The notes below the pieces were generated by a model. The model ran no database searches. It was not told the DNA's origin and worked only from the letters and a program-made list of their open reading frames with translations. The translations under genes were made by a program, and so were the position numbers. DNA of 64,000 bases from Methanosarcinales archaeon (GTDB lineage: Archaea > Halobacteriota > Methanosarcinia > Methanosarcinales > Methanoperedenaceae): the NCBI GenBank assembly GCA_905339155.1, contig CAJPFJ010000037.1, positions 1-64,000 of the forward strand. Reading direction: 5' to 3'. This document shows positions 38,754-43,527 of this stretch, piece by piece. How positions within the stretch are numbered: the stretch's first letter is position 1; the number at the start of each line of letters is the position of its first letter.

Positions 38754-39770
38754 TTATATGTTCTTGATTAATCCAAGATCTTTTTTTATAATTTCATTTT
38801 CAATATCGGCAGGTTTTTTCGGAAAATTGAATATTTTTGAAAACGTTTCATTCGCCATCGGTCGGTTACATCCGGAACATCCGGAAGTCTGGAAAGCTTT
38901 TCCATCTTCAATAATGTCAAGAATAACTTCCTCATATACACCATAATCTATGAGCTTTCCATCTTTGAACCTCATATCAGAATAATATGCAAGCTTTTCC
39001 AGGATCAAGTGCCTTGCAAGCTGCACCGTTCGATAATGTCTTATAGTTTCACTCTCTGTTTTATATGGTGGTTTTGATTGTGTCCCGGGTATATGGGTAT
39101 ATGAAAACAGCGCTGTATTAACATTATTATTCCAGAAATCAGAAATTACCTTTATAGCATCTTCATCGCTTTCCCCGAGACCTATTATCAAATGCGTTCC
39201 GACTTTTTCAAATGCCAGGGAAGCAGTTTTTATTCCTTCAATATGTTTTTCCCAGGAATATGGTCCACCCGTTGTTTTTCCTTTTATCTTATCGAATAAT
39301 CCGGGTGTACATGCATCAAGTGGAATAACAAGTTCGTTGACTCCGAGTCTTCTTAAATCGTCATATTTTCCAGTACTCAATGGAAAAACCGATAACGATA
39401 TTGGGATCTGGCTTTCTTCCCGGATTCTCATGATAAGGTAAACCGTGTCCTCCCACCATGTATCATAAAGCGCGGTCTGTATACAGGCGCGCGCAAGATA
39501 CCCGCGTTCGTATGCAATTTTTAGGCGCCCGACCACTGCCTCAAGGTCAAAAGGAATGTACATACCGCGAGCAATATGCATCATATCTGCGGATGAGCCG
39601 GATGCCTGAGCGCAGAACTGGCAATTTGCGTTGCAGCGTTTTTCGGTGTATATCTGAAGATAAGCTGTTGTTGGAGGCGTATCCATCTGTACAAGTTCAA
39701 GCCCGAGTACGCCAAGTGTTCCCATTGAAGCCCTGACCTTTTTCTTCGAGGGAACTATCCGGGAAATCAT
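38754..39770 (-). CDS. Radical SAM protein, biotin-synthase-like (LipS2-like)
   Basis: A 338-residue radical SAM enzyme: TEKRCNANCQFCAQASGSS gives C-x3-C-x2-C at about 46-53, then THLIIGLGESDEDAI, and a C-terminal Cys pair SGCSGCNRPMANE that could hold a second Fe-S cluster. The architecture matches the archaeal 'biotin synthase-related' group to which LipS2 (lipoyl synthase) belongs. I lean to a sulfur-inserting enzyme, perhaps lipoyl synthase; LipS1 is not in the window. A ferredoxin gene lies 12 nt upstream in the same direction. Confidence 0.72.
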   Translation of the reverse strand: MISRIVPSKKKVRASMGTLGVLGLELVQMDTPPTTAYLQIYTEKRCNANCQFCAQASGSSADMMHIARGMYIPFDLEAVVGRLKIAYERGYLARACIQTALYDTWWEDTVYLIMRIREESQIPISLSVFPLSTGKYDDLRRLGVNELVIPLDACTPGLFDKIKGKTTGGPYSWEKHIEGIKTASLAFEKVGTHLIIGLGESDEDAIKVISDFWNNNVNTALFSYTHIPGTQSKPPYKTESETIRHYRTVQLARHLILEKLAYYSDMRFKDGKLIDYGVYEEVILDIIEDGKAFQTSGCSGCNRPMANETFSKIFNFPKKPADIENEIIKKDLGLIKNI

Positions 39771-39782
39771 GCGGCGGGGCCG

Positions 39783-39995
39783 CTAACAAGAATGGTGCTT
39801 GATGGCCTTTGTCGGGCATGCATCCACGCATGCGCAGCATTCGATGCAGTCTGCAATGCGTATGGCTTTTGATTTGCCGTCCACGATTTCAAAAACATTG
39901 GTCGGACAAACATTTACACATTCGCCATCCGCATTACACTTATCTTCATCAATCTCGATTGTTATAGAGCCTTCATTGTATTTCTTAACTGCCAT
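39783..39995 (-). CDS. Ferredoxin, 2[4Fe-4S]
   Basis: A 70-residue protein with two C-x2-C-x2-C-x3-C-P type motifs. The first is altered: CNADGECVNVCP spaces the first two Cys by five residues, which may hold a 3Fe or a variant cluster. The second, CIECCACVDACP, is normal. It starts the transcription unit and is followed by the radical SAM gene after 12 nt, so it may deliver electrons to it. A short basic tail AIKHHSC adds one more Cys. Confidence 0.88.
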   Translation of the reverse strand: MAVKKYNEGSITIEIDEDKCNADGECVNVCPTNVFEIVDGKSKAIRIADCIECCACVDACPTKAIKHHSC

Positions 39996-40073
39996 GATTT
40001 ATGTTCTCCAGTTCGGTTAGTGTTATTATTTAAGATTAAAGGTTTTGGTACTCTCGCAAAAGGTTCACTAATG

Positions 40074-40216
40074 TTAATGTCCACTGACATTTTGGGTAAA
40101 TCCATAGTACAAAATGAAATATTATCTACCAAATTTCACAATGTAGAGAAATAGTTTGTTTTATAACTGTGATGAAATGTTTATCACTTTTAACCCAACA
40201 GGTATCTGGACATTAA
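40074..40216 (+). repeat. Left copy of a 143-bp MITE-like repeat
   Basis: It starts TTAATGTCCA and ends TGGACATTAA, a perfect 10-bp terminal inverted repeat. Internally AATGTC-CACT-GACATT near the left end can form a hairpin. Compared with the right copy there are five substitutions and two length differences (1 and 6 nt). No coding capacity is seen. The AT-rich spacer 39996-40073 before it has nothing else to report. Confidence 0.75.
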
Positions 40217-40381
40217 CCTTAATGCGAGTAGAAAGAAGATAAAAGCCTGTTAAAAAGTGCATATAATTTAGAATTATGTGCAGTTTTGAAATAAAACGAT
40301 ATGCTTTGCCATTGTAAAAGAAGAGATGAAATAATGACCAAATGGAGTTATTTTTATGTGATTGAAAATCAATTATTAAAT

Positions 40382-40585
40382 ATGTCTGAGGCAATAAACT
40401 CCAAAGAAATATTATATGAATTAAAAGCAATTAGAGAAGATCTTGATTATATTAAGGGCCATATGGTAGATATTGACTCAATTCTAACTGAAGAGGATTA
40501 TCTTTCTATACAGGAATACAGAAAAGAAAAAGCTTCTGGCTTACTTACTTCCCATGAGGATCTCAAGAATGAATTGGGAATATGA
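40382..40585 (+). CDS. RelB-like antitoxin
   Basis: A 67-residue acidic helical protein from ATG 40382 (MSEAINSKEILYELKAIRED), ending LTEEDYLSIQEYRKEKASG and HEDLKNELGI. The SxE-x-L tail preceding a RelE-type gene is the usual layout of RelB-like antitoxins. Longer in-frame starts exist upstream at 40334 and 40316. The stop codon overlaps the toxin start (ATATGATG). The gene sits inside the inverted-repeat element. Confidence 0.68.
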   Translation: MSEAINSKEILYELKAIREDLDYIKGHMVDIDSILTEEDYLSIQEYRKEKASGLLTSHEDLKNELGI

Positions 40586-40839
40586 TGTTTGATATTAAAT
40601 ATTCAAGGCAAGCGGTCAAATATCTAAAATCTCTTGATAAGACGCTTGTTTTGAGAATTCTTCACAAAATTGAAAAATTAAAAGAAGAACCAATCCAGCA
40701 CGATTCTAAAACAGTTGAAGGGTATGATGAGAAATTATTTAGAGTGCGGGTAGGAGATTATAGAATATTGTATGAAGTGGATTATAAAAATAATCTGATA
40801 GGAATCGTGAAGATAGAAAAAAGAGGGAGAGCTTACTGA
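40582..40839 (+). CDS. RelE/ParE-family toxin
   Basis: An 85-residue protein: FDIKYSRQAVKYLKSLDKT at the start, then EKLKEEP, KLFRVRVGDYRILYEVDY and VKIEKRGRAY. R-x-G-x-Y-R-I-x-Y and the terminal K-R-x-x-A-Y are hallmarks of RelE-like endoribonucleases that cut mRNA on the ribosome. It follows and overlaps the antitoxin gene. The complete motif set suggests an active toxin that may help keep the surrounding repeat element in the population. Confidence 0.88.
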   Translation: MMFDIKYSRQAVKYLKSLDKTLVLRILHKIEKLKEEPIQHDSKTVEGYDEKLFRVRVGDYRILYEVDYKNNLIGIVKIEKRGRAY

Positions 40840-40969
40840 TGTTTAATTTTTCATGTTTTGGCGTATTTAAAAGTTCCGATGATGGAATTTTAACGGTACA
40901 ACTTGTATCGCAGAAATTGTTAAAGCCCCATATACCTATTCAGGAATTATCCTGATCATTCTTGGACTT

Positions 40970-41275
40970 ATGATGGCTATATGGGCTGATTCTTTATTCA
41001 AAAAGAGCAAAACAACAATAATGCCATATGAAATTCCGACTTCGCTGGTAACTGAAGGTCCTTTTCGCACTAGCCGCCAGCCAATATATTTAGGAATGAC
41101 ACTTATATTATTTGGTGAGGCCATTCTTTTAGATTCATTGATTACATTCATTTTCCCGGTAATTTTCATAATTTTAATGGAAAAAATTTTTATTTCTGTT
41201 GAAGAAAAGAACCTTGAAATGGCCTTTGGAGAAAAATACCTGGATTACAAAAAGAAAGTCAGGCGCTGGATATAA
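40970..41275 (+). CDS. Isoprenylcysteine-methyltransferase-like protein, N-truncated
   Basis: From ATG 40970, 101 residues: SLVTEGPFRTSRQPIYLGM and, near the end, EEKNLEMAFGEKYLDYKKKV, the SAM-binding core of the ICMT/PEMT membrane methyltransferase family, with two or three membrane segments. In-frame coding-like sequence continues upstream to about 40882 (NFNGTTCIAEIVKAPYTYSG) without an ATG, so the original N-terminus is lost. Compared with the usual 150-200 residues it is short. It lies in the inverted-repeat element and is probably a captured or decaying gene. Confidence 0.62.
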   Translation: MMAIWADSLFKKSKTTIMPYEIPTSLVTEGPFRTSRQPIYLGMTLILFGEAILLDSLITFIFPVIFIILMEKIFISVEEKNLEMAFGEKYLDYKKKVRRWI

Positions 41276-41324
41276 TTATTTAACATAGGAGATCAATATT
41301 ATGGAGATGAATAAGTATCTAAAA

Positions 41325-41427
41325 GAGTTGTTCCGATAATAGTGACATATAGGTACTTTGTAAATTCTAACATACTTTACTCGCATGCTGAGACGCTTTC
41401 AAAAACCTTCTTTTATCGGAACAACTC
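41325..41427. repeat. Miniature inverted-repeat element (103 bp)
   Basis: GAGTTGTTCCGATAA (41325-41339) and TTATCGGAACAACTC (41413-41427) are perfect 15-bp inverted repeats around 73 bp. Such a short element without coding capacity is MITE-like and its ends could belong to an IS family not present here. It lies inside the larger composite element, after the methyltransferase frame. The rest of the spacer to 41531 shows nothing I can name. Confidence 0.65.
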
Positions 41428-41531
41428 CCATAGAAATGTCGTGTAGTACCAAACCCATTAAAAAAGCAGTGCTTACGAGTTTGAGGCGAAAATCACTCAA
41501 GACAGAACATCAGTCGGGAAGATCGCTAAGT

Positions 41532-41681
41532 TTAATGTCCAGATACCTGTTGGGTTAAAAGTGATAAACATTTCATCACAGTTATAAAATAAACTATTTC
41601 TCTACATTGTGAAATTTTGTAGATAATATTTCAATTTCATTTTGTACTATGGATTTACCCCAGAATGTCAGTGGACATCAG
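41532..41681 (-). repeat. Right copy of the MITE-like repeat (150 bp)
   Basis: The inverse of 40074-40216. It keeps the inner end TTAATGTCCA but its outer end reads TGGACATCAG with two substitutions. It has a 6-nt duplication (TGAAAT) and one extra G. After it, 41689-41910 contains no convincing gene: a 71-codon reading starting inside the repeat has no family and no Shine-Dalgarno. Confidence 0.75.
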
Positions 41682-41910
41682 CACTAATACACTTCACATC
41701 ATGGCTTTATTGCTTATTACTTACATATCAGTGAATATGGTCAATATAATCGATGTGAATAAGTACATTTTGGAAAAACATAATGAATGTTTTACCGGAG
41801 CACAAATTTGCAAAGTCAAGCTAAAGCGTTTTTTTACATGGGCGGGCAAATCTGAACTCGTAAGCCATCTTAATACGTAAACTATGCAACCCTGAAGGGC
41901 TTGCCTCATC

Positions 41911-43527
41911 ATGTCTTTTCTAAAGTCCACCGAATCAGCAGCCAGGGAAATCATAGAACAACTCCTTCGAAATGAGATCCCTGATGAAAAAGCCCTCAAT
42001 GCAGCAAAAAAATCCGCAAGCATTCGATATAAGCTTTCGTCCCTTCTTGGCAATTCCCAGATCCTTGAAGCTGCTCGTAACGTTGAGGAGAAACAATACG
42101 TCCTTGAACATCTCCAGTTAAAACCCGTAAGAACGATTTCAGGAGTAGCGGTGATAGCAGCTATGACATCCCCCGCGCCATGTCCACACGGTTTATGCGT
42201 TCCCTGCCCGGGAGGCGTTGATTCCAGATTCCACTCACCGCAAAGCTACATGGGAGCTGAACCCGCCGCCAAACGCGCTTTTGAGAATAATTTTGATCCC
42301 TATTTGCAGGTCACATCGCGCTTAAAACAGCTCTCACAAATTGGGCATCCGGTTGAGAAAGCGGAACTTATAGTAATGGGTGGAACATATACTTCCCGGA
42401 TGCTGTGCTACCAGGAATGGTTCGTTAAACGTTGTGTCGAGGCCATGAATGATTTTTATGGAACAGAATGGCGAAAAGACAGGGATTATTTTCCAGTGGA
42501 AGAAGTCCAATCTGCAAATGAGAGCGCTCAGGTACGAAATGTCGGGATAACCATTGAGACAAGACCTGACTGGACAAAACAAGAGCATATCGATACAATT
42601 CTTGAACTGGGTGCGACAAAGGTGGAGATCGGGGTACAGAACACATATGATTTTATCCTCGCAGGCATACAGCGCGGGCATACAGTTGCATCAAGCGCTG
42701 ATGCCAATATGAGATTGAGGGATAGCGGACTGAAGGTGGGATTCCATATGATGCCGGGGCTTCCAGGTGCAACAGTGGACTCCGATCTTCGGATGTTTAA
42801 AAGGTTATTCGAGGATGAGCGCTTCATGCCTGATTATCTCAAGATATACCCCACACTTGTCACTGAAGGAACACGGCTCCACGGAATGTGGGAACTCGGG
42901 GATTATGCGCCTCTTGAAGTTCTTGAGGCTGTCGAGTTGCTTGCCAAAATAAAAGCCCTGCTGCCTAAATGGGTACGCCTGCAAAGGATCCAGCGTGACA
43001 TTCCAGCGTACCAGGTGCTTGCAGGCATAAGGAAAAGCAATATCAGGCAGCTTGCAAAAGAACGGCTCATTGAAATGGGTGGAAAATGCAGGTGCATCAG
43101 GTGCCGTGAAGTTGGGCATAAGGAGCTTTCAGGAATAAAACCTGAGAATATTGAACTGATAAACGAAAAATACAGGACTTGCGGAGGTTTGGAACACTTC
43201 ATTTCATTTGAAGATGCAAGAATGGATGTATTGATCGGCTTCCTCAGGCTGCGCTTCCCGGCAGAGCCTCACCGAACTGAACTTGAAGGCGCAGCGCTTA
43301 TACGTGAACTTCATGTCTATGGCTCGATGGTAGCGCCGGGTGAGGACGCGGGTGAATCACAGTGGCAGCACAAAGGCTATGGTGAAGAACTCCTGACCCA
43401 AGCAGAAGAAACAGCAAGGGTTGCCGGATATGAAAAAATTGCGGCAACAAGCGGTATAGGCGTCAGGGATTATTACAGGAAATTCGGGTATGAGCGAGAA
43501 GGACCATACATGACGAAAAGATTGTGA
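41911..43527 (+). CDS. elp3: Elp3, tRNA U34 acetyltransferase
   Basis: A 538-residue archaeal Elp3. The radical SAM domain has CPHGLCVPCPGG (cluster Cys) and GVQNTYDFILAGIQRGHT; the C-terminal GNAT domain has GEDAGESQWQHKGYGEELL with the acetyl-CoA loop and ATSGIGVRDYYRKFGY. Archaeal Elp3 works alone to start the cm5U34 type modification. A zinc-binding CRCIRC lies between the domains. Forty bp separate it from the dehydratase-like pair downstream, which may be co-transcribed. Confidence 0.95.
   Translation: MSFLKSTESAAREIIEQLLRNEIPDEKALNAAKKSASIRYKLSSLLGNSQILEAARNVEEKQYVLEHLQLKPVRTISGVAVIAAMTSPAPCPHGLCVPCPGGVDSRFHSPQSYMGAEPAAKRAFENNFDPYLQVTSRLKQLSQIGHPVEKAELIVMGGTYTSRMLCYQEWFVKRCVEAMNDFYGTEWRKDRDYFPVEEVQSANESAQVRNVGITIETRPDWTKQEHIDTILELGATKVEIGVQNTYDFILAGIQRGHTVASSADANMRLRDSGLKVGFHMMPGLPGATVDSDLRMFKRLFEDERFMPDYLKIYPTLVTEGTRLHGMWELGDYAPLEVLEAVELLAKIKALLPKWVRLQRIQRDIPAYQVLAGIRKSNIRQLAKERLIEMGGKCRCIRCREVGHKELSGIKPENIELINEKYRTCGGLEHFISFEDARMDVLIGFLRLRFPAEPHRTELEGAALIRELHVYGSMVAPGEDAGESQWQHKGYGEELLTQAEETARVAGYEKIAATSGIGVRDYYRKFGYEREGPYMTKRL

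What the first reader, a model, noticed from the sequence alone, without database searches (positions are those of the whole stretch)
40066..41688. Composite element: inverted 143/150-bp repeats carrying RelBE and a truncated methyltransferase
Two nearly identical non-coding repeats (five substitutions, two small indels) lie in inverted orientation 1.3 kb apart. Each has TTAATGTCCA/TGGACATTAA-type ends, and CACTAAT flanks the whole unit on both sides. This is the structure of a non-autonomous composite transposon, here with a toxin-antitoxin pair as cargo that could stabilise it. No transposase is present and I know no named element with these ends.
Basis: partly seen in the sequence, partly recalled or inferred. 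Interest (0 to 1): 0.75.

Follow-up and report, generated by a model that had tools for sequence, protein, structure and literature searches.

The report
Toxin-antitoxin unit between two mini-transposons
In a methane-oxidising archaeon, two copies of a short transposon-like repeat enclose a toxin-antitoxin gene pair, and matching 6-letter marks outside them suggest that the package once jumped as one piece with a transposase borrowed from a related element.

Summary
Two inverted 145/152-bp copies (96% identical) lie 1.3 kb apart around a RelE/ParE-type toxin-antitoxin pair and an N-terminally truncated PEMT-type methyltransferase. The repeat is a MITE (non-autonomous mini-transposon) with ~28-bp terminal repeats, a third copy in this genome, and relatives in Methanoperedenaceae plus one ANME-2 genome. 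The same ends bound ~0.9-kb elements carrying a decayed DDE transposase of IS3/IS481 type, the probable source of mobility. One MITE of the family, absent from the orthologous site in two relatives, had duplicated 6 bp, N-YTAR-N. By that rule the window pair has identical outer duplications (ACTAAT/ACTAAT) while the inner 6-mers differ (CTTAAT, GCTAAG), as a composite that jumped as one unit predicts. By chance 2.6% of end pairs match 6/6. Limits: only one such unit found; relatives' RelBE lacks these ends; 9 of 13 other elements lack matching duplications; no intact transposase found in this genome. MITE-bounded composites are known in bacteria (TIME-COMPs). This one is archaeal, bounded by IS3/IS481-like MITEs, with toxin-antitoxin cargo, and is probably now fossil or dependent on an outside transposase.

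The parts
40067..40072 (.). left outer 6-bp target duplication ACTAAT
   Evidence: identical to 41683-41688; N-YTAR-N rule from empty site
40073..40217 (+). left MITE copy, GTTAATGTCC...GGACATTAAC, 145 bp
40218..40223 (.). inner 6-mer CTTAAT beside the left copy, fits N-YTAR-N but differs from the outer one
40334..40585 (+). antitoxin-position ORF (83 aa from an internal ATG of the listed ORF 40301-40585), no family match
   Evidence: the two-gene block is 93% / 92% identical at DNA level in G024 / G006
40582..40839 (+). RelE/ParE-type toxin (85 aa)
   Evidence: Pfam ParE_toxin 1.9e-11; RelE_StbE below cut-off
40970..41275 (+). N-terminally truncated PEMT-type methyltransferase
   Evidence: Pfam PEMT 1.4e-10; 69% DNA match to a longer paralogue at G000:C40
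41318..41434 (.). imperfect 25-bp inverted repeat inside the cargo, nature unknown
   Evidence: no further copy in the own genome
41525..41530 (.). inner 6-mer GCTAAG beside the right copy
41531..41682 (-). right MITE copy, 152 bp, outer end mutated (CTGATGTCC)
41683..41688 (.). right outer 6-bp target duplication ACTAAT

Best explanation
The unit is a MITE-bounded composite transposon. Two sister copies of a Methanoperedens MITE landed on either side of a toxin-antitoxin pair and a broken methyltransferase gene. A transposase of the related IS3/IS481-like element, supplied in trans, then used the two outermost ends and inserted the whole 1.6-kb block into an ACTAAT target, duplicating it. Shown: the MITE family, ends shared with a transposase-bearing element, the 6-bp N-YTAR-N duplication at one family insertion, the identical outer 6-mers, and differing inner 6-mers. 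Inferred: the transposition event itself and the identity of the enzyme. The unit is probably not mobile now, because only broken transposase pieces were found in the own genome and one outer end is mutated.
For: MITE family: third copy at G000:C46 and copies in 8 of 59 other genomes searched (9 of 60 with the own one); terminal-repeat pattern in 16 of 34 family genomes, own included, none for the reversed control pattern. IS: 884- and 956-bp stretches with these ends hold DDE (rve-type) transposase fragments. Duplication rule: the G004 MITE is flanked by TCTAGT on both sides, and the orthologous sites in G025 and G021 lack the element and have one copy of the place. Target preference: YTAR at the expected place in 63 of 71 distinct ends (59 of 67 without the window's) against 0.8% of window positions. 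Window: outer 6-mers match 6/6, each single copy only 4/6 with its own inner flank; among 2211 pairs of non-window ends 58 (2.6%) match 6/6. The two copies are nearest each other in a tree of 15 copies (85/84) and share the derived GGGTTAAA inner end. The related genome G017 has the ferredoxin gene of the left side and the integrase-like fragment of the right side in the same order without the unit.
Against: Only one such unit was found. In G024, G006 and G033 the RelBE relatives have no such end within the fetched flanks (scan at up to 5 mismatches; flanks are 1.5 kb in G024 but cut by contig ends in G006 and G033). Over the 16 rows (13 sound single elements, the two window copies and one misplaced row) flank matching did not exceed shuffles (P 0.13 for the sum, 0.28 for the number of 6/6); of the 13 non-window single elements only 2 match 6/6 and 2 match 5/6. 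The duplication length thus rests on one locus with two relatives, and two archaeal IS481 members named in PMC10045372 make 15-bp duplications. The G017 site is not a clean empty site: ~300 bp of unrelated DNA stands there, and the Elp3-like gene that follows in the window is on another contig of G017. Chance outer match is 2.6%, not negligible. An intact transposase could be missed in a 79-contig, 97%-complete assembly.
Confidence: 0.68

Rival explanations
1. Two MITEs inserted independently on either side of the cargo and never moved together; the equal outer 6-mers are chance within a strong YTAR preference, and the inner flanks were altered later by recombination or deletion.
For: 9 of 13 other single elements also have flanks matching 4/6 or less; at G020:C51 the left flank agrees with the uninserted G021 site but the right flank is unrelated, so flank loss by rearrangement does occur. 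Outer match by chance 2.6%.
Against: Both copies would have to have lost their own duplication while the outermost pair agrees 6/6.
Confidence: 0.25
2. A resident single MITE was converted into a pair by recombination or intramolecular transposition that brought in the cargo.
For: The two copies are sisters, as a local duplication would give.
Against: By reasoning, inversion-type intramolecular transposition predicts that each inner 6-mer is the reverse complement of an outer one; CTTAAT and GCTAAG are not. A single crossover between copies gives direct, not inverted, repeats.
Confidence: 0.05
3. The repeat is a conserved RNA gene or regulatory element, not a transposon.
For: It is non-coding and conserved over ~145 bp.
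Against: No Rfam match reached its gathering score in 39400-42400. Copies sit beside different flanks, share ends with a transposase-bearing element, and one is absent from orthologous sites with a target duplication.
Confidence: 0.02

Closest known systems
TIME-COMP (composite structures bounded by Tn3-derived MITEs; includes the IMU-bounded units) - PMC13367494, passages read
   Same: two MITEs, inverted or direct, enclose unrelated genes; transposase in trans; past transposition is read from direct repeats outside the outermost ends
   Different: those MITEs derive from Tn3-family transposons with 5-6 bp repeats, and the cases in that paper are Enterobacteriaceae with resistance cargo; here the ends match an IS3/IS481-like element in an archaeon and the cargo is a toxin-antitoxin pair
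IS481 family insertion sequences - PMC10045372 and PMC2516522, passages read
   Same: DDE transposase matched in part by the IS481 model; the majority of IS481 members make 6-bp duplications; ISLxc2 duplicates NCTAGN, as our N-YTAR-N
   Different: match is below the curated cut-off and the C-terminal half scores higher with IS3; the termini are GTTARTGTCC, whereas ISLxc2 starts TGTG; two archaeal members named there (ISMac4, ISA0963-1) make 15-bp duplications
Prokaryotic MITEs, archaeal ones included - PMC10969869, passages read
   Same: 50-500 bp, terminal inverted repeats, no transposase, mobilised in trans
   Different: the passages read name MITEs in Sulfolobus, Halobacterium, Haloquadratum and others; none of those passages mentions Methanoperedens

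Membership tests
MITE | short, non-coding, terminal inverted repeats shared with an autonomous element | tested here: met
   ~145 bp, ~28-bp TIR shared with elements carrying (broken) transposase genes
MITE | several copies at unrelated sites | tested here: met
   3 copies in own genome; matches in 8 of 59 other genomes
MITE | target duplication on insertion | tested here: met
   shown at one site with two uninserted relatives; not significant over all elements
MITE-bounded composite transposon | two MITE copies enclosing other genes | tested here: met
MITE-bounded composite transposon | identical duplication outside the outermost ends | tested here: met
   ACTAAT/ACTAAT 6/6; chance 58 of 2211 pairs, 2.6%
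MITE-bounded composite transposon | movement as a unit (second site, or clean empty site) | tested here: inconclusive
   no second unit in the own genome; G017 lacks the unit but has 300 bp of other DNA at the site
IS481 family | transposase above the NCBIfam IS481 cut-off | tested here: not met
   44.5 and 53.9 bits on two fragments from different copies, cut-off 224; IS3 scores 35.3 and 66, cut-off 160; fragments only. A distant intact relative (G030:C58, 35% identical) scores 75.7 and 98.7
IS481 family | 6-bp duplication with NCTAGN-like target | tested here: met
   TCTAGT at G004; YTAR in 63 of 71 ends
IS481 family | termini starting TGT (as in ISLxc2; as a rule for the family recalled) | tested here: not met
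   TGTCC lies 5 bp inside the terminus GTTARTGTCC set by the empty site
RelBE/ParDE type II toxin-antitoxin | RelE/ParE-family toxin next to a small, overlapping antitoxin gene | tested here: met
   ParE_toxin 44.8 bits, cut-off 23; ORFs overlap by 4 bases; the partner ORF itself has no family match
RelBE/ParDE type II toxin-antitoxin | toxicity neutralised by the antitoxin | not testable with these tools
   needs an experiment

The most novel reading that the evidence does not exclude
The ends of this family may pair promiscuously. Any two nearby ends could mobilise what lies between, so mismatching flanks (9 of 13 single elements) would be the trace of frequent composite jumps, and the element would act as a general gene shuttle among Methanoperedens species. 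Its terminus GTTART itself fits the target N-YTAR-N, as if an old target duplication had been captured as part of the element.
Probability: 0.15. Interest if true: 0.6.

Novelty: new variant of a known kind. Interest (0 to 1): 0.45.

Why it matters
It gives Methanoperedens (ANME-2d; genus inferred from the named records that correspond to its relatives) a defined mobile-element family with ends, target rule and probable transposase. It is also a case of an archaeal MITE pair that probably moved a toxin-antitoxin operon. Such small units are easily missed by annotation because they carry no transposase. If confirmed, it extends the bacterial TIME-COMP principle to archaea and to a different transposase class. 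Five literature searches (listings only, the listed papers were not opened) showed no title on such an element in Methanoperedens; most subscription journals are not in that library.

Tried and rejected
Conserved RNA: Rfam at E<=1 on 39400-42400 gave one hit, SNORD46 at 19.5 bits against a cut-off of 40. 4-bp duplication of the TTAR next to TGTCC: rejected, because the inner TTAR travels with the element (in G029 the left end is TTAATG in 3 of 3 loci and the right end TTAGTG in 5 of 5, beside different flanks; one further G029 end, at C76, belongs to another version) and the empty site lacks it. General test of matching flanks: not significant; told as evidence against. Viral origin: two pattern scans of viral contigs found 0. 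Wider spread: the 0-mismatch pattern is in 16 of 185 genomes of the order, own included, 15 of them in the family and one (G050) outside; in the GTDB collection 32 stretches, one of them titled ANME-2 cluster archaeon HR1. The transposase was found at E<=1e-15 in 6 of 185 order genomes, all of the same genus. Empty site for the window unit: left and right neighbours are together in G017 with ~300 bp of other DNA between, so not clean. RelBE movement with the MITEs: not seen in G024, G006 or G033 (the scan printed no end in them). Inner 25-bp inverted repeat: apart from the window's own two arms, single 1-mismatch hits in 3 of 34 genomes, left open. Whether the distant intact transposase at G030:C58 has ends of this family was not examined. 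A covariance model of the MITE was not built. Folding of the MITEs was not done (one search failed on length).

Full report
Observation. Two copies of a ~145-bp non-coding repeat lie inverted at 40073-40217 and 41531-41682. Aligned end to end they show 139 matches, 6 substitutions and 2 gap runs. Between them are a small ORF plus a RelE/ParE-type toxin (Pfam ParE_toxin, E 1.9e-11; RelE_StbE below its cut-off) and a PEMT-type methyltransferase that lacks its N-terminus. The unit is AT-rich, 32% GC against 42% for the 10 kb to its left and 41% for the 10 kb to its right.

The repeat is a mobile family. The own genome has a third copy at 88%, and 9 of 60 genomes searched have matches, the own one included, that is 8 of 59 others. 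A pattern for the terminal repeat, TTARTGTCCANNNACNNNNNGGGGTAAA with one mismatch, is found in 16 of 34 family genomes, own included, and the reversed control pattern in none. With no mismatch and one base shorter it is in 16 of 185 genomes of the order, 15 of the family and one outside. In the GTDB collection the shorter pattern gives 32 stretches: 24 titled Methanoperedens or Methanoperedenaceae, 5 titled uncultured archaeon LFW, 2 titled Euryarchaeota KR11, and one ANME-2 cluster archaeon HR1. The LFW and KR11 contigs correspond in length or position to contigs of family genomes G004, G010, G011 and G020. Several copies stand at contig ends, as repeats do. Two pattern scans of viral contigs gave none.

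The autonomous partner. In G006:C187 (6846-7801) and G020:C51 (13743-14626) the same ends bound 956- and 884-bp stretches with fragments of one transposase. Two pieces from different copies hit IS481 and IS3 models below both cut-offs; the C-terminal one hits rve_3 in Pfam. The catalytic D, and D with E after 35 residues, can be read in the fragments (counted by eye; the motif is recalled). A search with a query put together from pieces found matches in 16 of 34 family genomes at E<=0.001, weak and IS3-like ones included, and in 6 of 185 order genomes at 1e-15. In the own genome only interrupted or short pieces of this transposase were found (C21, C46), in an assembly of 79 contigs and 97% completeness. 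G030:C58 holds an intact relative at 35% identity; its ends were not examined.

Target rule. Joined flanks of 11 single elements and of the window unit were searched in 34 genomes. For one of the 12, the G004:C61 MITE, the uninserted site exists in G025 and G021. G004 reads TTTCTAGT-C-[TTAATGTCC...GGACATTAA]-C-TCTAGTGATTG, and the relatives have that place once, without element, its sequence diverged. Hence a 6-bp duplication, N-YTAR-N, and termini GTTARTGTCC (first base C at one G004 end). The majority of IS481 members make 6-bp duplications, though two archaeal ones make 15 bp (PMC10045372, passages), and ISLxc2 duplicates NCTAGN (PMC2516522, passages). In 71 distinct ends YTAR stands at the expected place in 63, against 0.8% of window positions.

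The window unit under this rule. Outer 6-mers: ACTAAT and ACTAAT. Inner 6-mers: CTTAAT and GCTAAG. So the outermost ends match 6/6, while each copy matches its own inner flank only 4/6. Of 2211 pairs of non-window ends, 58 (2.6%) match 6/6. A composite that jumped as a unit predicts this pattern; inversion by intramolecular transposition does not. The two copies are sisters in a tree of 15 copies (85/84).

Results against. Over the 16 rows (13 sound single elements, the two window copies, and one misplaced row, L014, that I should have dropped) flank matching does not exceed shuffles (P 0.13 for the sum; 0.28 for the number at 6/6 and at 5/6 or more). Four more elements were set aside there because a contig end cut their flank. 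Of the 13 non-window single elements, 2 match 6/6, 2 match 5/6 and 9 match 4/6 or less. For one of these nine, G020:C51, G021 shows that the left flank is original while the right is unrelated, so rearrangement can explain lost matches; the others are unexplained.

Neighbourhood and cargo. G017:C43 has the same ferredoxin gene on the left and the same integrase-like fragment on the right, without the unit but with ~300 bp of other DNA; the Elp3-like gene that follows in the window is on another G017 contig. The toxin-antitoxin block is 93% identical in G024 (40343-40851), 92% in G006 (40335-40805) and 79% in G033 (40341-40840), while the Elp3-like gene next to the unit is 74%, 71% and 76% identical there over the parts matched. 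This suggests transfer between species. No ends of this family lie in the fetched flanks there (flanks cut by contig ends in G006 and G033), so that transfer did not visibly use these MITEs.

Verdict. A MITE-bounded composite with toxin-antitoxin cargo, probably moved once as a unit by an IS3/IS481-like transposase in trans, now probably fossil. The principle is known in bacteria as TIME-COMP (PMC13367494, passages), where past transposition is likewise inferred from direct repeats outside the outermost ends. What differs here is the archaeal host, the transposase class and the cargo.

Noticed in passing
window 41698-41880: Remnant of an integrase-like N-terminal fragment (identified by eye, no Pfam hit); the piece 41744-41881 has matches in at least 23 other genomes of the 34 (list cut), and a longer version stands in G017:C43.
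   Followed up: partly
window 41318-41434: Imperfect 25-bp inverted repeat (AGAGTTGTTCCGATAA...) inside the cargo, no other copy in the own genome.
   Followed up: partly
window 40874-40909: 37-bp stretch shared (89%) with G000:C40:44767-44803, ~300 bp downstream of the longer PEMT paralogue there.
   Followed up: no
L004 (G030:C79), 1501-1644: A MITE nearer to the window pair than the third copy of the own genome is, although the Elp3-like gene is only 73% identical between the two genomes: likely transfer between species.
   Followed up: partly
L203 (G010:C62): Two MITEs of the family 4.8 kb apart in direct orientation, another possible pair; the outer left flank is cut by the contig end.
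   Followed up: no
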